NCBI RefSeq assembly: GCF_002940685.1 | Contig: NZ_PNFP01000001.1 | Coordinates: 186,001-250,000, forward strand | DNA: 64,000 nucleotides | Direction of reading: 5' to 3' | Source: Ensifer adhaerens | Lineage (GTDB): Bacteria; Pseudomonadota; Alphaproteobacteria; Rhizobiales; Rhizobiaceae | In this document: positions 4,088 through 12,072 of the stretch, one piece after another | How the letters are laid out: every line of letters begins with the position of its first letter | How positions within the stretch are numbered: position 1 is the first letter of the stretch | Made by a program: the position numbers and the translations under genes | The notes under the pieces: model-generated | Database searches by the model: none | What the model saw: only the letters and a program-made list of their open reading frames with translations | Told to the model about the DNA's origin: nothing

Positions 4088-5071
4088 ATGTTTTCCCGCC
4101 TCTTCTCCCGTTCCAAACGTCCGTTTCTTTCCTTGAGCGAGCAGGAAATCCTGGCGCTCGCCATCTCCTCCGAGGAGGACGACGGGCGCATCTACCTCGC
4201 CTATGCCGACGCGCTTCGGGTGCAATATCCCCACTCGGCAAAGGTGTTCGAGGAGATGGCGGAGGAGGAAAGCCACCACAGGCAATGGTTGATCGATCTG
4301 CACATCCAGCGCTTCGGCAACCGCATTCCGCTCATCCGCCGCGAGCATGTGCGCGACTTCCCCGAGCGCAAGCCCGACTGGCTGATCGCCGAAATGCCGA
4401 TCGAAAAGGCGCGCGAGGAGGCCGAAGCGATGGAGGAGGCGGCGCACCGCTTCTATGTCGAGGCCGCCGCCAGAACCCAGGATGCGGCGACCCGCAAGCT
4501 GCTCGGCGACCTCGCGATCGCCGAGAAGTCGCATGAATCGCTCGCCCGCCGGCTTGGCGAAGAGCACACGCCCGAAGACGTGCGCGCCGAGGAGGACCAG
4601 ACCTCGCGCCGTCAGTTCATTCTCACCTACGTTCAGCCCGGTCTCGCCGGGCTGATGGACGGCTCGGTGTCGACGCTGGCGCCGATCTTTGCCGCCGCCT
4701 TCGCCACCCAGGACACCTGGCAGACCTTCCTCGTCGGCCTCTCGGCCTCCGTCGGCGCCGGCATCTCCATGGGCTTCACCGAAGCCGCCCACGACGACGG
4801 CAAGCTTTCAGGGCGCGGCTCGCCGATCAAGCGCGGCCTTGCCTCGGGCATCATGACCGCGCTCGGCGGTCTCGGCCATGCGCTGCCCTATCTGATCCCG
4901 CATTTCTGGACGGCGACCGCCACCGCGGCGGGGATCGTGTTCTTCGAACTCTGGGCGATCGCCTTCATCCAGAACCGCTACATGGAAACGCCGTTCCTGA
5001 GAGCCGCATTCCAGGTGGTGCTTGGCGGCGGCCTGGTGCTTGCGGCCGGCATCCTGATCGGCAACGCCTGA
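4088..5071 (+). CDS. mbfA: Membrane-bound ferritin MbfA (erythrin-VIT1 iron exporter)
   Basis: A 327-residue fusion. Residues about 15-170 form a rubrerythrin/ferritin-like four-helix domain with carboxylate and ExxH ligands (EEESH at 59-63 and AEKSH near 150). Residues about 175-327 form a VIT1/CCC1-type transporter domain with several membrane segments, including GLMDGSVSTLAPIFAAAFA. In Rhizobiales this protein lowers intracellular iron by export and protects against iron and peroxide stress. The perfect ICE box directly upstream predicts repression by Irr when iron is low. The ATG at 4088 follows the operator by 15 bases, and the Shine-Dalgarno sequence is weak (AAGG). Transcription ends at a perfect bidirectional hairpin just downstream. 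Confidence 0.94.
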   Translation: MFSRLFSRSKRPFLSLSEQEILALAISSEEDDGRIYLAYADALRVQYPHSAKVFEEMAEEESHHRQWLIDLHIQRFGNRIPLIRREHVRDFPERKPDWLIAEMPIEKAREEAEAMEEAAHRFYVEAAARTQDAATRKLLGDLAIAEKSHESLARRLGEEHTPEDVRAEEDQTSRRQFILTYVQPGLAGLMDGSVSTLAPIFAAAFATQDTWQTFLVGLSASVGAGISMGFTEAAHDDGKLSGRGSPIKRGLASGIMTALGGLGHALPYLIPHFWTATATAAGIVFFELWAIAFIQNRYMETPFLRAAFQVVLGGGLVLAAGILIGNA

Positions 5072-6852: not shown

Positions 6853-7072
6853 GCAAATTCTCTCCAAAGGCCGGTTTAGCGGGTGATTTTCTTTCTAAAA
6901 CAGATTCGTCTTGCTATCGACAGGTGGTGATTTTCCTTGCAAGCCGTGCTATTGACTCTGGCGCCGCAATTCACACATTGCCGTCGGTGACAGATTCAGG
7001 CGCTTCGTTTGGGATCGCGCCGGCGATCGAATTAAACAACATTTTTGGAAATAGCTCGAGGAGAGTACGACC

Positions 7073-7609
7073 ATTCGCAGACCGTTCAAAGCGGACGCCC
7101 CCGTCAAGGAGGGGCCGCGCTCAAACAAGGAAATCCGGGTTCCCCGGGTTCAGCTTATCGATGCCGAAGGCCAGAACGTCGGCGTCGTTCCGATCGACCA
7201 GGCGCTCCGCATGGCGGACGAGGCCGGTCTTGATCTGGTGGAAATCGCGCCGAACTCCGAACCGCCGGTGTGCAAGATCCTCGATCTTGGCAAGCTGAAG
7301 TTCGCCAACCAGAAGAAGGCGGCCGAAGCGCGCAAGAAGCAGAAGATCGTCGAAATCAAAGAAATCAAGATGCGTCCCAACATCGACACGCACGACTATG
7401 ACGTGAAGATGCGGGCGATGAACCGGTTCTTCGAGGACGGCGACAAGGTCAAGGTCACGCTGAAGTTCCGCGGTCGCGAAATGGCGCACCAGGAACTCGG
7501 CATGAAGCTTCTGCTGCAGGTCAAGGACGACACCCAGGCGATCGCCAAGGTGGAAGCCGAGCCGAAGCTCGAAGGCCGCCAGATGATGATGGTTCTCGCG
7601 CCGCGCTAA
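7073..7609 (+). CDS. infC: Translation initiation factor IF-3, AUU start codon
   Basis: A 178-residue IF-3. The N-terminal domain runs from about residue 12 to 80 ([20 protein letters not shown]) and the C-terminal domain follows ([15 protein letters not shown]). IF-3 binds the 30S subunit and checks start codon choice. The first in-frame ATG is at 7211, but that would delete 46 conserved residues. An in-frame TAG at 7052 bounds the search, and the only fitting start is ATT at 7073, with GAGGAGA 8 bases upstream. AUU start codons on infC are known in E. coli and other bacteria and let IF-3 repress its own translation. A terminator follows immediately, so infC is not co-transcribed with rpmI here. 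Confidence 0.95.
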
Positions 7610-7640
7610 GCCGCTTGCCGCCCATCCATCGCAATCGACG

Positions 7641-7667
7641 AAAAGCCGCCTCCGGGCGGCTTTTTTT
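7641..7667 (+). terminator. Rho-independent terminator of infC
   Basis: GCCGCC-TCCG-GGCGGC forms a 6-bp stem with a stable tetraloop. AAAA lies before it and seven T after it. It lies 31 bases past the infC stop. Confidence 0.92.
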
Positions 7668-7688
7668 GTTGTCGATCCTTTTGCCTTT

Positions 7689-7729
7689 CCTGACAGAGCG
7701 CTGACAATTGTCCTCAGCGAGCTGTCAGG
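7689..7729 (+). promoter_or_regulatory. Tandem OmpR-type box upstream of the poly-Asp/two-component module
   Basis: CTGACA occurs at 7690 and again at 7701, an 11-base period (6-bp half-sites, 5-bp spacer) typical of OmpR/PhoB-family regulator binding. A third copy in reverse orientation (CTGTCAG at 7722) makes CCTGACAG/CTGTCAGG an 8-bp inverted repeat. It lies 50-90 bases before the start codon at 7779. Binding by the regulator encoded at 9031 is an inference. Confidence 0.5.
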
Positions 7730-7778
7730 CATCCCGTGCCATTCTCTCCGCATCGCATCGGGAGAAGGAGCCGAGATC

Positions 7779-8279
7779 ATGACTTCAGTGCTGCGAAAGG
7801 CCTTGCTCGTTTCTACGGTCGCCGTCTGCGGCCTCGTTTCGGCGCCGATCGGCGCTTCGCTCGTTGCCGGCGGTGCCGCGCATCCTTTCTCGACCATGGC
7901 GTTGGCCGACGACGATGATGACGACGACAACAGTGGTCGCGGTGGTGGTGATGATGACGACCGTGGCGACGATCGCGACGATGACCGAGACGATGACGAT
8001 CATCGCGGCCCCGGTCACCGCGACGACGACGATGACGACATCGACGACGACTTCGACGATGCCCGGGATGACCATGAGATCGAACTGCGGGTTACCGACG
8101 AGAGCCTGCGAGGTCTGCGCAACGGTTCGCTGGTTGCCGTCGACAATCTCGGCCGGGTGCTCGAGGTCGATGTGGAATACGAACGGGGCGTTCGCGTCGT
8201 GACGGTCGAGCCGCGCGACAGCGATATCCGCCGCAATCCCGGACCGATCGGCAGCGTCTCCATCCGGCCGGCATTCTGA
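7779..8279 (+). CDS. Exported aspartate-rich protein (poly-Asp linker)
   Basis: A 166-residue protein with a signal peptide of about 43 residues ending near MALA. It is followed by roughly 60 residues that are mostly Asp with Gly, Arg and His (runs of up to seven Asp). A compact C-terminal part of about 65 residues (from ELRVTDESLRGL) looks like alternating strands. I do not recognise a named family; the C-terminal part could be a short, diverged PepSY-like fold. The Asp tract should bind divalent cations or basic peptides in the periplasm. GGAGAAGGAG precedes the start. It is the first gene of a four-gene module with a second poly-Asp protein and a two-component system, and a tandem OmpR-type box lies upstream. 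Confidence 0.8.
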   Translation: MTSVLRKALLVSTVAVCGLVSAPIGASLVAGGAAHPFSTMALADDDDDDDNSGRGGGDDDDRGDDRDDDRDDDDHRGPGHRDDDDDDIDDDFDDARDDHEIELRVTDESLRGLRNGSLVAVDNLGRVLEVDVEYERGVRVVTVEPRDSDIRRNPGPIGSVSIRPAF

Positions 8280-8373
8280 TCCGGCCGCAATTTGCCCGGC
8301 GCATTAGCCCCACACCATGCGCCGGAGCAATGGTCGGCCGTCACCAGCCCCGCCCGGCGGCCCGACCCGGCAA

Positions 8374-8415
8374 GCGCATGCCCCCTGTGCCCGATACGGC
8401 GCTGGGGGCATGCGC
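8374..8415. repeat. Perfect 12-bp inverted repeat between the two poly-Asp genes
   Basis: GCGCATGCCCCC (8374-8385) and GGGGGCATGCGC (8404-8415) are exact reverse complements around an 18-base spacer. It lies in the 256-base gap between the two exported acidic protein genes. There is no T-run, so it is either a transcript-stability or attenuation hairpin or a protein-binding site. Confidence 0.75.
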
Positions 8416-8535
8416 GCCGCTGGCGTTCCCGTAAAGGCTGGAATAGGCTCGCCCCGGCGATTGCCCGCGGCCTGTTCTGCGAGCGCATTGTGAAGACGGA
8501 ACCGGACCTGAGGAGAGCCGCGACAGGATGAAGCC

Positions 8536-9021
8536 ATGGCGATGACACGTCGAGATCTGATCGCGCTCTTCTGCTGCTCGCTCCTGCTTTCGCTCGCGCC
8601 GCGGCCGGGCGGAATGACGGCCCTCGCCGAGGATGACGACGACGATGACGGCGGTTCGGGTGGCGGAGGCGGTTCGGGGGGCGGCGGCTCCGGAAACGAC
8701 GACGATGATGATGGCGACGACGATGACGATGACGCGGATGAAGATGAAGATGAAGACCTCGGGCCAGATGGCGCGGGCAGCGGCCGCCGCAGCGATCAGG
8801 AGCGCGCCCGCGCCGGCGTCGAAAAGGGCGACATCCTGCCGTTGAAGGAAGTTCTGCAATTGGTCGACGAAGACAGATACGGCACGGTCATCGCGGTCGA
8901 TCTCAAGCGATCGGGCGGCAGCGAGATCTACCGGCTGCGCACCCGCGACCGGCAAGGCACGATCCGCAACCTGCGCATCAATGCACGGACCGGCAAGTTC
9001 GTGAACCTGTTCGGTTTTTAA
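8536..9021 (+). CDS. Exported poly-Asp protein with C-terminal PepSY-like domain
   Basis: A 161-residue protein with a signal peptide ending near ALA (about residue 31). A low-complexity region of Asp/Glu runs and Gly-Ser linkers extends to about residue 85. A folded C-terminal domain of about 75 residues has the PepSY pattern: ILPLKEVLQLVDEDRYGTVIAVDL, then EIYRLRTRDRQG, then LRINARTGKFV. PepSY domains are small extracytoplasmic modules often found beside two-component kinases or peptidases. The gene ends 9 bases before the response regulator and is probably co-transcribed with it. Start codons at 8536 and 8542 are both possible. In organisation it recalls the periplasmic inhibitor FeuN next to FeuP/FeuQ in Sinorhizobium, but homology is not shown. 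Confidence 0.8.
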   Translation: MAMTRRDLIALFCCSLLLSLAPRPGGMTALAEDDDDDDGGSGGGGGSGGGGSGNDDDDDGDDDDDDADEDEDEDLGPDGAGSGRRSDQERARAGVEKGDILPLKEVLQLVDEDRYGTVIAVDLKRSGGSEIYRLRTRDRQGTIRNLRINARTGKFVNLFGF

Positions 9022-9030
9022 AGGAGCAGC

Positions 9031-9696
9031 ATGCGGATTCTTCTGGCAGAGGACGATCCCAACATTGCGGCCCATGTGGCGAGCCGGCTGGAGGCGGAAG
9101 GCTACGGCGTCGACACGCTCGCCCATGGCCCGGATGTCTGGGAACAGGGGGAAACCGGCAACTACGCCTTGGTGATCCTCGATCTCGGCCTGCCGGGCAT
9201 GGACGGGCTGTCGATCCTGAAACGCTGGCGACAGGCGGGACTGGAGACGCCAGTCCTGGTGCTGACGGCGCGCGGCTCCTGGATGGAGCGCGTCGACGGT
9301 TTCGATGCCGGGGCGGACGACTATCTGCCGAAACCCTTCCGGGCCGAGGAGCTGCTGGCGCGGCTGCGCGCGCTGTTGCGACGCGCCGGTCCCCGTCTGC
9401 AGTCGGTGCGCGCGGCCGGACGGTTCACGCTCGACGAAGCCGGGCGTCGGGTGACGTTCGACGGCCAGGCGCTCGACCTCAGTCCGCTCGAATATCGCAT
9501 GCTGGCGCTGTTCGTGGAGCGCAAGGGCCAGGTCGTCACGCCGCTCGAACTGGCAAGCCACGTCCAGGGCCGCGACGACGATGCCGCCAAGAATGCGGTC
9601 GAAGCGATGATCGCCCGCCTGCGCAAGAAGACCGAGAGCGGCGCGATCGAAACGCGTCGCGGATTTGGCTATGTCCTGCCGGACGGTGGCGCGTGA
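9031..9696 (+). CDS. OmpR-family response regulator
   Basis: A 221-residue regulator with a receiver domain (residues 1-115) and a winged-helix DNA-binding domain (about 125-219). The acidic pocket (E7, D8, D9), the phosphoacceptor D51 in LVILDLGLPG, T79 and K101 in YLPKPF are all present. The effector domain shows LSPLEYRMLALFVERKGQVVT and the recognition-helix and wing region NAVEAMIARLRKK...RRGFGYVL. It is preceded by AAAGGAGC. Its stop overlaps the kinase start codon by 4 bases, so translation is coupled. The closest familiar type is PhoP/FeuP. It probably controls its own module through the CTGACA repeats at 7690-7706. Confidence 0.94.
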   Translation: MRILLAEDDPNIAAHVASRLEAEGYGVDTLAHGPDVWEQGETGNYALVILDLGLPGMDGLSILKRWRQAGLETPVLVLTARGSWMERVDGFDAGADDYLPKPFRAEELLARLRALLRRAGPRLQSVRAAGRFTLDEAGRRVTFDGQALDLSPLEYRMLALFVERKGQVVTPLELASHVQGRDDDAAKNAVEAMIARLRKKTESGAIETRRGFGYVLPDGGA

Positions 9697-11060
9697 TCCG
9701 CTCGTTGCGGCTGAGGCTCGCGATCGGCGCGTCGATTGCCATCGGCCTGGTTCTGCTGGTGGTCTGGCTCTCCCTGAGCAGGCTTTTCACCGACTACGTC
9801 GCCGGACGCTACCGCGCCGAAATGGCAACGCTCGTCGATACAGTGGCCGCCCAGGTGCGGGTGCGCAACGGCGAACTGGTGCTGCCGCGCGAGCCCGCCG
9901 ATCCGCGCCTCAGCCTGCCGGCCGGCGGCCGCTACTGGCAACTCGACCGTGACGGTGGGCCTCCCCTGCGTTCGCGCTCTCTGTGGGATACGGTGATCGA
10001 CGTCGATCGACCGTCGGCGCCGCGCCACCTGGACTTCCTGCAAGCGGAGGGGCCCGACGGCGCGCCGATCCTGGTCTACCGGCAAGCCCTGACGCTCGGC
10101 GAAGGCGCGGATGCCAAGCCGTTTGCGGTCACTGCCGGCTTTGCGCGCCGCGAACTCGATGATGCACTTTCCGCCTTTCACGGCCGCATCCGGCTGATGT
10201 TGCTGGCGACCGCCTTCGTGCTTGCCGGCGCCGCATTCCTGCAGGGCGCGCTCGGTCTTCTGCCGCTGGCGCGCCTGCGGGAACGTGCCGCCCGCGTCCG
10301 GTCCGGAGAAGAGAAGGATTTTGGTCTGGCCGGCCCGAGCGAAGTGCAGCCGCTCGTCAGCGAAATCAATCTCCTGCTTGCGGAGCGCGCGACGGCGCTG
10401 GCGCAGGCCCGGGCGCGCGCCAGCGACCTTGCCCACGGGTTGAAGACGCCGCTGACGGTGCTGGCGCAGCTTGCCGAAAACCTGCCGGGGGAGCAGCGCG
10501 ACATCGCCCTCGAACAGGTCGATCTCGTACGCCAGCGCGCCGACCGTCAGCTCCAGGCGGCCCGCATGGGCGTCGAGCGCATGGCAACGACCTTGATCGC
10601 CGATCTCGGCAACAAGCTGGTCAGCGTCCTGCGTCCAGTGACGGCCGAGCGCGCTATCGTCTGGGAGGTCGACATCGATCCGTCGCTCTCGCTCGACGTC
10701 GATCCGGCCGACCTTGCCGAATGTCTCGGCAACCTGCTCGACAATGCCGCCAAATGGGCGCGGGCGCGCATCCGCCTCTCGGCGGACGTGGTCGACGGGC
10801 GCGTGCGGATCACCGTCGGTGACGACGGGCCGGGCATTGCCGAGCGCGACCGCAAGCAAGCGACGCGTCGCGGAGCCCATGGCGCCGATGCCGGGCCGGG
10901 CCAGGTGTCCGGCAACGGCCTGGGGCTGGCCATCAGCGCCGACATAGCAGAAGCCTACGGCGCGAACATGTCGCTTGGGCAGTCGGCTCTCGGCGGCCTC
11001 GAGGTCGCATTGATATTCGACGTCGTTGGCGGCGGCCGTCGCCCGCGCGATCCGGTTTAG
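9693..11060 (+). CDS. PhoQ/FeuQ-like sensor histidine kinase
   Basis: A 455-residue inner-membrane kinase. Membrane segments lie at about 11-29 and 168-190 and flank a periplasmic sensor domain of about 135 residues. The H-box reads DLAHGLKTPLTVL with phosphoacceptor H248, the form typical of the PhoQ and FeuQ groups. The N-box is CLGNLLDNAAKWA (N344, N348), G1 is DDGPGI and G2 is GNGLGLA, so all catalytic elements are intact. The GTG start at 9693 overlaps the response regulator stop (GTGA). With two exported poly-Asp proteins encoded just upstream, a role in sensing cations or cationic compounds in the periplasm is a reasonable inference, but the signal is unknown. Confidence 0.93.
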   Translation: MIRSLRLRLAIGASIAIGLVLLVVWLSLSRLFTDYVAGRYRAEMATLVDTVAAQVRVRNGELVLPREPADPRLSLPAGGRYWQLDRDGGPPLRSRSLWDTVIDVDRPSAPRHLDFLQAEGPDGAPILVYRQALTLGEGADAKPFAVTAGFARRELDDALSAFHGRIRLMLLATAFVLAGAAFLQGALGLLPLARLRERAARVRSGEEKDFGLAGPSEVQPLVSEINLLLAERATALAQARARASDLAHGLKTPLTVLAQLAENLPGEQRDIALEQVDLVRQRADRQLQAARMGVERMATTLIADLGNKLVSVLRPVTAERAIVWEVDIDPSLSLDVDPADLAECLGNLLDNAAKWARARIRLSADVVDGRVRITVGDDGPGIAERDRKQATRRGAHGADAGPGQVSGNGLGLAISADIAEAYGANMSLGQSALGGLEVALIFDVVGGGRRPRDPV

Positions 11061-11147
11061 CGCGCAACGCGTCGTCGCAAAAGGCGGACTATGCATTCGG
11101 CCGAGGCACTCCATCGCCGCTTGCAGCCCGCCTCTTCGATTCCCCAG

Positions 11148-11176
11148 TTGCGCTTTTCGGGATGTGCGGTTATAAG
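11148..11176 (+). promoter_or_regulatory. Candidate sigma-70-type promoter of rpmI-rplT
   Basis: TTGCGC (11148-11153) and TATAAG (11171-11176) with 17-base spacing lie about 105 bases before rpmI. They leave a roughly 100-base leader that could carry ribosomal-protein feedback structure. The preceding gene ends at 11060, so a separate promoter for the ribosomal genes is expected. Confidence 0.45.
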
Positions 11177-11279
11177 CCCCCGTCCGAACGGTCCGGCAGG
11201 GCATGCCGTGGCCGTTCTTAACGCTGGAAATGGACCTCGTCTGTCCGTTTCGATTACTTAAGAACAATGGAGTAGCAAA

Positions 11280-11483
11280 ATGCCCAAGATGAAGACGAAA
11301 TCGTCTGCCAAGAAGCGGTTCAAGATCACCGCCACCGGCAAGGTTCGTGCAGCAGCTGCTGGCAAGCGCCACGGCATGATCAAGCGTACCAACAAGTTCA
11401 TCCGCGACGCGCGTGGAACCATGGTTCTCGCCGAGCCTGACGGCAAGAAGGTCGTCAAGAACTACCTGCCGAACGGTCTCTAA
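11280..11483 (+). CDS. rpmI: Large ribosomal subunit protein bL35
   Basis: A 67-residue basic protein with the bL35 signature ([21 protein letters not shown] and [18 protein letters not shown]). It is a component of the 50S subunit. It is followed after 39 bases by rplT, the standard pairing. In many bacteria infC precedes rpmI directly. Here about 3.7 kb holding a terminator and a four-gene two-component module separates them, so rpmI must have its own promoter; a candidate is at 11148. Confidence 0.98.
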
Positions 11484-11522
11484 GACTTTCAGGCATATTG
11501 GACACGTTAAGGAGATCATGAC

Positions 11523-11927
11523 ATGGCACGTGTAAAACGCGGCGTAACCGCTCACGCCAAGCACAAGAAGACGCTGAAGGCAGCCAAGGGCTTCTACGGC
11601 CGTCGCAAGAACACCATCCGCGCTGCAAAGGCTGCGGTTGACCGTTCGAAGCAGTACGCTTACCGCGACCGCAAGGTCAACAAGCGCAACTTCCGCGCTC
11701 TCTGGATCCAGCGCATCAACGCTGCCGTCCGCGAATTCGGCCTGACCTACGGCCGCTTCATCGACGGCCTGAACAAGGCTGGCATCGAAGTCGACCGCAA
11801 GGTTCTGTCCGACATGGCTATCCATGAGCCGGCAGCATTCGGCGCCCTCGTCGAAGCTTCCAAGAAGGCGCTCGCCTATCTCAAGGAAGCCGGCACGGCA
11901 AACGAGTTTGAAAGCGCTGTTCGTTAA
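11523..11927 (+). CDS. rplT: Large ribosomal subunit protein bL20
   Basis: A 134-residue bL20 with the basic N-terminal extension ([30 protein letters not shown]) that binds 23S rRNA, and the globular domain ([21 protein letters not shown]). It is an early assembly protein of the 50S subunit. It is co-transcribed with rpmI, with AAGGAG before the start. In other bacteria bL20 represses its own operon by binding a leader; I see no recognisable copy of that leader, but the 100-base upstream region of rpmI is long enough for one. Confidence 0.98.
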
Positions 11928-11968
11928 GCCAGCGTTTTCCCAAAACCGTTCTTGAAATTTGTTGGGAA

Positions 11969-11999
11969 ACCCGCGCTGGCAGGGCTGGCGCGGGTTTTT
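11969..11999 (+). terminator. Rho-independent terminator of rpmI-rplT
   Basis: CCCGCGC (from 11970) pairs with GCGCGGG (11988-11994), and the inner bases extend the stem loosely. TTTTTC follows. It lies about 45 bases past the rplT stop. Confidence 0.82.
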
Positions 12000-12072
12000 C
12001 TTGTTCTGCGGGAAGAAAGTGCACCACGATCGAAGGGGACCATCGGCAGTCCCGAAGCTTGATGACGACGAC

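What the first reader, a model, noticed from the sequence alone, without database searches (positions are those of the whole stretch)
7689..11060. Four-gene poly-aspartate/two-component module inserted in the translation cluster
Two exported proteins made of a signal peptide, long poly-Asp tracts and a small folded C-terminus (the second PepSY-like) lie directly before a coupled OmpR-type regulator and a PhoQ/FeuQ-like kinase. The order, 4-base regulator/kinase overlap and 9-base PepSY/regulator gap mean the parts are expressed together. A plausible idea is that the Asp-rich proteins bind cations or cationic peptides in the periplasm and modulate the kinase, as FeuN inhibits FeuQ. I do not recognise this combination as a described system.
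Basis: partly seen in the sequence, partly recalled or inferred. Interest (0 to 1): 0.75.

Follow-up and report, generated by a model that had tools for sequence, protein, structure and literature searches.

The report
Rhizobial PepSY sensor with acidic output
In soil bacteria of the Ensifer group, a membrane sensor pair that is probably held in check by a small exported protein sits behind a gene for a second, very acidic exported protein of a new family, which looks like the thing the sensor switches on.

Summary
The four genes are real and conserved. AcA (7779-8279) and AcB (8536-9021) are exported-looking proteins with Asp-rich linkers; an OmpR-type regulator and a PhoQ-like kinase follow. 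AcB is a PepSY protein, so AcB-regulator-kinase is a rhizobial case of the published DbfQRS-like modules, where DbfQ binds its kinase and favours phosphatase output. It is not the FeuNPQ-like locus, which lies elsewhere in this genome. New is AcA: a 70-residue domain with no convincing Pfam, PDB or viral-structure relative. AcA tracks one kinase clade (13 of 297 family genomes, all among the 19 with that kinase; 14 of 16 genus genomes, 2 having neither). CTGACA-N5-CTGACA precedes AcA in 14 of 14 genus copies and 6 of 8 others. Each of 25 AcA-AcB spacers holds a hairpin, 19 beyond all 60 shuffles. AcA therefore looks like the system's main, separately terminated output. Acidity is typical, not essential. 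Four AcA relatives outside the module lie near a NarL-type pair or an ECF sigma factor. New variant of a known kind, with one new protein family; signal, kinase binding and cation binding are inferred.

The parts
7640..7665 (+). intrinsic-terminator-like hairpin after infC
   Evidence: 11-pair stem, then a T run; consensus match only, 3 found in the region against 2.2 in shuffles
7690..7728 (+). probable regulator box of the AcA promoter: CTGACA (7690), CTGACA (7701), CTGTCAG (7722-7728)
   Evidence: the three elements keep their spacing in 14 of 14 genus copies
7779..8279 (+). AcA: acidic protein with Sec-like signal to about residue 43, Asp-rich linker and a new C-terminal domain
   Evidence: export is read from the sequence
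8067..8276 (+). AcA domain, 70 residues, AlphaFold2 mean pLDDT 87.7
   Evidence: no convincing Pfam family, no solved or viral fold match at E<=0.001
8296..8325 (+). first spacer hairpin (9-bp stem, 12-nt loop)
8374..8415 (+). second spacer hairpin (12-bp perfect stem, 18-nt loop), terminator- or attenuator-like, without a T run in this copy
   Evidence: 0 of 60 shuffles reach it
8536..9021 (+). AcB: PepSY protein with acidic Gly/Asp linker and a twin-arginine-type N-terminus (TRRDLIA)
8836..9003 (+). PepSY domain of AcB (residues 101-156)
9031..9696 (+). OmpR-family response regulator
   Evidence: Response_reg 1.4e-25, Trans_reg_C 4.4e-17
9693..11060 (+). PhoQ-like sensor histidine kinase with GRYWQ...RSRSLW in the sensor part and DLAHGLKTP at the H-box
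   Evidence: motifs read; domains; best NCBIfam model PhoQ, 120.1 bits against a cut-off of 497

Best explanation
AcB, regulator and kinase form a DbfQRS-type envelope sensor: exported AcB binds the periplasmic domain of the kinase through its PepSY domain and keeps it in the phosphatase state; a stimulus (most likely a change in cations, cationic peptides or the outer membrane) relieves this, and the phosphorylated regulator binds the CTGACA repeats. Its main target is AcA, exported as a polyanionic, linker-rich envelope protein and made in excess because a terminator-like hairpin lies between AcA and the signalling genes; AcA then buffers or shields against the stimulus and so closes a negative loop. 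Shown: gene order, PepSY homology, co-conservation with one kinase clade, conserved promoter repeats, hairpins at the same place in different genera, a confident AcA fold prediction. Inferred: export, AcB-kinase binding, direction of control, regulator binding to the box, AcA excess, the ligand and the buffering role.
For: AcB is PepSY and is encoded directly before the regulator and kinase, as dbfQ is before dbfR and dbfS; DbfQ binds the DbfS sensory domain with Kd 30 nM (PMC12714742). The 28 clade kinases form one supported clade (100/99) with AcA in 22 rows; the label needs 4 changes on the tree, which fits early gain and later losses. AcA is in 13 of 297 family genomes, all within the 19 of 297 that carry this kinase (hypergeometric 1.6e-18, kinship not corrected); in the genus 14 of 16 have both and 2 of 16 neither. 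The box stands at a fixed distance in 14 of 14 genus copies, as an exact double box before 6 of 8 other AcA genes, and a double box of the same type (CTGWCA, either strand) stands upstream of the regulator in 10 of 22 related loci without AcA and nowhere else in those 22. Exact sites in the 16 genus genomes: 37 against 3 for the reversed control pattern; in the window's genome two, here and before a tctC-like gene. Each of 25 spacers (22 after AcA, 3 after a domain-less acidic protein) has a perfect stem of 8-16 bp; 19 of 25 exceed all 60 shuffles.
Against: No experiment or complex prediction shows AcB touching this kinase. Charge is lost in some members (L060 AcA -3, AcB +1; L166 AcB +5), so a cation sponge cannot be the universal role. 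The same box type precedes modules without AcA, so it may mark autoregulation in general, not AcA alone; 2 of 8 non-genus AcA genes, 2 of 3 domain-less ones and all 3 clade loci without AcA lack the double box. The window's second hairpin has no T run; 13 of 25 spacers have 4 or more T in the 8 bases after the stem. In L043, L045, L046 and L047, 3 to 15 of 60 shuffles equal the best stem, and in L044 and L161 one does. Covariation in the spacer is slight (-0.34 kcal/mol). With one mismatch the box gives 18 sites in the window's genome against 10 for the control, many of them PhoB-like, so further targets may be hidden. Six of the 19 kinase-clade genomes lack the AcA domain: 3 keep an acidic protein without it, 3 have none found. 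AcA also occurs without this module (L152, L158, L160, L228).
Confidence: 0.5

Rival explanations
1. Both acidic proteins are inputs: AcA and AcB jointly bind Ca2+, Mg2+, Fe, lanthanides or cationic peptides and report occupancy to the kinase, as two DbfQ-like proteins may do for BqsS in Pseudomonas aeruginosa.
For: Some PepSY proteins bind metals (lanpepsy: passages of PMC11899968). AcB's best solved relative by profile is a double-PepSY protein (9vy3), which I recall, unverified, as lanpepsy. PA2658/PA2659 precedent. Acidic linkers in 14 of 14 genus copies of both proteins, and a twin-arginine motif in 24 of 26 AcBs, which would fit export of a folded, perhaps metal-loaded protein.
Against: Acidic charge absent in some members. 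AcA is set apart from AcB by hairpins. Of the two P. aeruginosa proteins only the one next to the two-component genes was predicted to bind BqsS. AcA relatives occur without PepSY or this kinase.
Confidence: 0.25
2. AcA and AcB are structural or adhesive envelope proteins that travel with a two-component system; the low-complexity tracts are spacers that carry the folded ends through the peptidoglycan layer, and charge is incidental.
For: Linkers vary freely in sequence and sometimes in charge while the end domains are conserved.
Against: Asp recurs in most members, with acidic runs up to 18; tight link of AcA to one kinase clade.
Confidence: 0.2
3. The box belongs to PhoB or another OmpR-family regulator and the module is part of its regulon.
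For: The repeat resembles the reverse complement of the PHO box as I recall it; several one-mismatch sites that recur between genomes look like PHO boxes.
Against: The seventh base of the repeat is G rather than T as in the recalled PHO box, and double boxes of this type stand upstream of the regulator in 10 of 22 related loci and nowhere else in them.
Confidence: 0.1

Closest known systems
DbfQRS of Vibrio cholerae and DbfQRS-like modules (PMC12714742, Nat Commun 2025; abstract, passages and section 8 read)
   Same: small exported PepSY protein directly before a regulator and a kinase; described as widespread, with some cases of two small proteins upstream
   Different: long, usually acidic linkers, twin-arginine-type N-terminus on AcB, and an extra non-PepSY AcA gene with its own promoter box and terminator-like hairpin
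FeuN-FeuP-FeuQ of Sinorhizobium meliloti (passages in PMC12486126, PMC5929573, PMC5539429; the FeuN paper itself is not held)
   Same: periplasmic small protein that binds and restrains a kinase, in rhizobia
   Different: a separate FeuNPQ-like locus lies in the same genome (L075); its 84-residue FeuN-like protein has no Pfam match and its kinase is 30% identical and outside the clade
PA2658/PA2659-BqsRS of Pseudomonas aeruginosa (from PMC12714742)
   Same: two small proteins encoded before one two-component pair
   Different: both are called PepSY proteins there; AcA is not PepSY by Pfam, and profile comparison is weak (probability 29%)
ExoR-ExoS-ChvI, CpxP-CpxA, MgrB-PhoQ (recalled; CpxP and MgrB papers seen as listing, ExoR)
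   Same: envelope protein acting on a sensor kinase
   Different: unrelated accessory proteins
Lanpepsy (passages in PMC11899968)
   Same: PepSY protein with affinity for cations, predicted periplasmic
   Different: two PepSY domains, lanthanide response; no metal binding tested here

Membership tests
DbfQRS-like module | small PepSY protein within four genes of a kinase or regulator | tested here: met
   AcB directly upstream; PepSY by its relatives, though the window's own copy is below Pfam's cut-off
DbfQRS-like module | N-terminal export signal on the small protein | tested here: inconclusive
   twin-arginine-type, hydrophobic N-terminus read from sequence; no signal-peptide predictor available
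DbfQRS-like module | small protein binds the kinase's periplasmic domain and favours phosphatase activity | not testable with these tools
   needs binding and phosphorylation assays
FeuNPQ | kinase groups with the genome's FeuQ-like kinase | tested here: not met
   30% identity; outside the 28-row clade. The FeuQ label rests on similarity, gene order and size; S. meliloti sequences were not compared
PhoPQ | reaches the NCBIfam PhoQ and PhoP cut-offs | tested here: not met
   PhoQ 120.1 of 497 bits; PhoP 134.3 of 336 bits; the best regulator model is PmrA, 180.8 of 330
Pfam PepSY (PF03413), for AcB | score above the gathering cut-off in the window copy | tested here: not met
   17.1 of 24 bits; homology nevertheless shown by relatives and profile
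Pfam PepSY, for AcA | sequence or profile match | tested here: not met
   PepSY is not among the 4 families that any of 15 members match at E<=1; hhalign probability 28.8%, E 0.0006, 45 columns, so distant kinship stays open
Tat substrates, for AcB | twin-arginine motif / TIGR01409 above cut-off | tested here: inconclusive
   RR motif in 24 of 26 clade AcBs read (of 28 clade loci); TIGR01409 below cut-off in 2 of 6 relatives tested (14.1 and 13.8 against 16.7), not listed for the other 4 nor for the window copy

The most novel reading that the evidence does not exclude
The AcA domain defines a new family of secreted, low-complexity, usually acidic envelope proteins that alphaproteobacteria have wired several times to different local envelope-signalling systems (PepSY/OmpR-type pair, NarL-type pair, ECF sigma factor with a possible anti-sigma partner), each time as the dedicated output of its neighbour: a reusable polyanionic shield or cation buffer.
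Probability: 0.3. Interest if true: 0.65.

Novelty: new variant of a known kind. Interest (0 to 1): 0.5.

Why it matters
Accessory periplasmic proteins that set kinase output are a current question, and what DbfQ-like proteins sense is not settled. This module offers a compact, testable rhizobial case: modulator, sensor, regulator, box and apparent output in one 3.4-kb stretch of a soil bacterium. It also gives a new small domain found here only near signalling systems, and natural losses (two genus members without the module, one with a kinase remnant) for comparison.

Tried and rejected
FeuNPQ identity: rejected. S. meliloti SMc02366/02367 as the counterpart: followed in passages; that pair lies downstream of degP1, so dropped; whether S. 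meliloti has this module was not tested. Regulon search with one mismatch in 4 genomes: only about twice the control, with PHO-like sites and one recurrent site that may be a tRNA promoter, so no further target is claimed. AcA as a PepSY: weak only. AcA fold search: no match at E<=0.001 in PDB or viral models. Weak hints towards OB-type folds (Pfam TOBE_2 in 4 of 15 members, best E 0.007; one solved sequence named 170_h_ob at E 0.094) were not pursued. First AcA structure model was poor (pLDDT 69); a more diverse 18-row alignment gave 87.7. RNA families in 7000-12000: none up to E=1. A promoter before AcB: no consistent candidate. The spacer in plasmid records: no match. Alignment A7, with the S. 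terangae spacer added, did not align its hairpins.
Full report
1. Observation. The four genes are present at the stated coordinates. AcA has 31 Asp in its 64-residue linker; AcB has 23 Asp and 4 Glu in 57 (linkers cut crudely by position). Pfam finds Response_reg and Trans_reg_C in the regulator, and HATPase_c with a sub-threshold HisKA in the kinase; the best NCBIfam kinase model is PhoQ, far below its cut-off. The host is probably close to Ensifer adhaerens: the named collection returns E. adhaerens L18 with a 97% identical AcA domain, on a contig of the same length as that of genome G002.

2. Conservation. In the genus, 14 of 16 genomes (the window's own included) carry the AcA domain and this kinase, and 2 of 16 carry neither intact. 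In the 13 module loci fetched from the 15 other genus genomes the order AcA-AcB-regulator-kinase-rpmI holds in 13; infC lies directly upstream in 12, and in L050 it fell outside the fetched stretch (the named locus L154, whose contig has the same length, has it about 2.5 kb before the AcA domain). Of the two genomes without the module, G014 keeps a kinase C-terminal remnant between infC and rpmI; none was detected in G009. In the family sample, 13 of 297 genomes have AcA, and these 13 are all among the 19 of 297 whose kinase scores 336 bits or more; the next kinases score 240 or less. One search scored at most 19 candidates per genome, so misses are possible. The 6 kinase-clade genomes without an AcA hit were read for Gly/Ser/Asp/Asn-rich reading frames: 3 (L161, L162, L165) have an acidic protein without the domain, and in 3 (L163, L164, L166) none was found; in L163 AcB was not detected either. 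In an order-wide sample 3 of 397 genomes have AcA (at most 15 candidates scored per genome), so the family is narrow. Of the 14 clade loci outside the genus, 9 are flanked by infC and rpmI, 2 show one of these flanks and 3 neither. The kinase tree has the 28 clade rows together (100/99), with the FeuQ-like kinase outside. So the place in the translation cluster is old, with losses and moves.

3. AcB. Relatives make it a PepSY protein (15 of 17 members at E<=0.1, PepSY_2 in 3; solved PepSY protein 9vy3 at 4.7e-14). In 24 of 26 clade AcBs read (of 28 clade loci) an RR motif opens the N-terminus (exceptions L115, L117); the three AcB-like proteins from outside the clade in that call lack it. A sub-threshold TAT model match in 2 of 6 relatives agrees weakly. 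Of 49 kinases of such loci, 42 match a sensor pattern G-x-Y-W...R-S-x-S-L-W that I wrote from these sequences and 7 match its first part; the FeuQ-like kinase also matches the first part, and two other kinases of the genome match neither.

4. AcA. Its 70-residue end domain has no convincing Pfam family: TOBE_2 in 4 of 15 members, best E 0.007. With 18 diverse rows AlphaFold2 gives mean pLDDT 87.7 and pTM 0.70, order E-H-E-E-E-H-E. Foldseek finds nothing at E<=0.001 in PDB or viral models. A profile comparison with PepSY gives probability 29% over the strand part, so distant kinship stays open.

5. Regulation. Upstream of AcA stand CTGACA-N5-CTGACA and CTGTCAG at fixed spacing in 14 of 14 genus copies. 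The exact double box occurs before 6 of 8 other AcA genes (not L116, L118) and 1 of 3 domain-less acidic genes, in none of the 3 clade loci without AcA, and a double box of the same type (CTGWCA, either strand) upstream of the regulator in 10 of 22 related loci without AcA, 9 of them 349-404 bases before it; those 22 loci hold no other. Across the 16 genus genomes the exact pattern gives 37 sites against 3 for the reversed control; in the window's genome there are two, here and before a tctC-like gene near a TctD-like pair (the tct names are my reading). Between AcA and AcB each of 25 spacers (3 of them after a domain-less acidic protein) has a perfect stem of 8-16 bp; 19 of 25 exceed all 60 shuffles, 2 are equalled once, and 4 genus copies are equalled 3 to 15 times; 13 of 25 have at least 4 T in the next 8 bases; the sequences differ between genera. 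In 8 genus copies 6 of 78 predicted pairs show a two-sided change, 2 of these 6 in the two hairpins named in parts, and the covariation term is only -0.34. This is what one expects if AcA ends on its own terminator or attenuator and the signalling genes get read-through or an unseen promoter.

6. AcA elsewhere. Besides 22 loci with PepSY-regulator-kinase (14 genus, 8 other) and the S. terangae locus (L150), four AcA-domain loci were found outside the module: L152 (recorded as Candidatus Phyllobacterium onerii), whose AcA domain is 73% identical, with a second low-complexity protein and a convergent NarL-type regulator and kinase; and L158, L160 and L228, within about 1.2 kb of a divergent ECF-type sigma factor and a protein with a 17-kDa-antigen-like end that may be its anti-sigma partner (my reading; in L228 that match is below Pfam's cut-off). 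So 27 of 27 distinct AcA-domain loci examined lie near a signalling system. The other ten loci have contig lengths equal to those of G genomes already counted, so they are not counted again; nine show all four genes, and in L159 (Oricola) AcB was not detected at that cut-off.

7. Reading. AcB-regulator-kinase is best filed as a DbfQRS-like module (PMC12714742). AcA is its probable dedicated output. The linker charge is strongly acidic in the genus but lost in Oricola (L060) and, for AcB, in L166, so a polyanion role is likely for Ensifer, not for the whole family.

8. Literature. Searches on FeuN/FeuQ, PepSY with kinases, PepSY with metals, SMc02366/7, aspartate-rich/PepSY/sensor kinase, BqsS/PA2658, lanpepsy, Ensifer with PepSY, PepSY with Rhizobium and Asp-rich with Sinorhizobium showed no listing that names this four-gene module; only open-licence papers are held, and most hits were seen as listings only.

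Noticed in passing
L096:4880-5011 (G014): A genus member without the module keeps a kinase C-terminal remnant between infC and rpmI, which suggests a loss.
   Followed up: partly
L152:4632-5928: AcA relative followed by a second Gly/Ser-rich protein with no Pfam match, next to a convergent NarL-type two-component pair.
   Followed up: partly
L228:4187-7148; L158:3253-5393; L160:3114-5399: AcA relatives near a divergent ECF-type sigma factor and a 17-kDa-antigen-like protein; L228 also encodes another acidic low-complexity protein between them.
   Followed up: partly
L076:741-757 (G000:C3:74740-74756): The only other exact CTGACA-N5-CTGACA site in the genome, before a tctC-like gene near a TctD/TctE-like pair; a near-identical site string appears in 16 of 16 genus genomes.
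   Followed up: partly
window 8296-8325 and 8374-8415: Two strong hairpins in the AcA-AcB spacer, conserved in eight aligned genus copies with few two-sided changes.
   Followed up: yes
window 7211-7609: infC read from the first ATG/GTG/TTG lacks the start of the IF3 N-terminal domain (profile 31-70 only), so its true start is probably an unusual codon upstream.
   Followed up: no
window 4088-5071: Rubrerythrin fused to a VIT-family domain, also present beside infC in several fetched loci.
   Followed up: no
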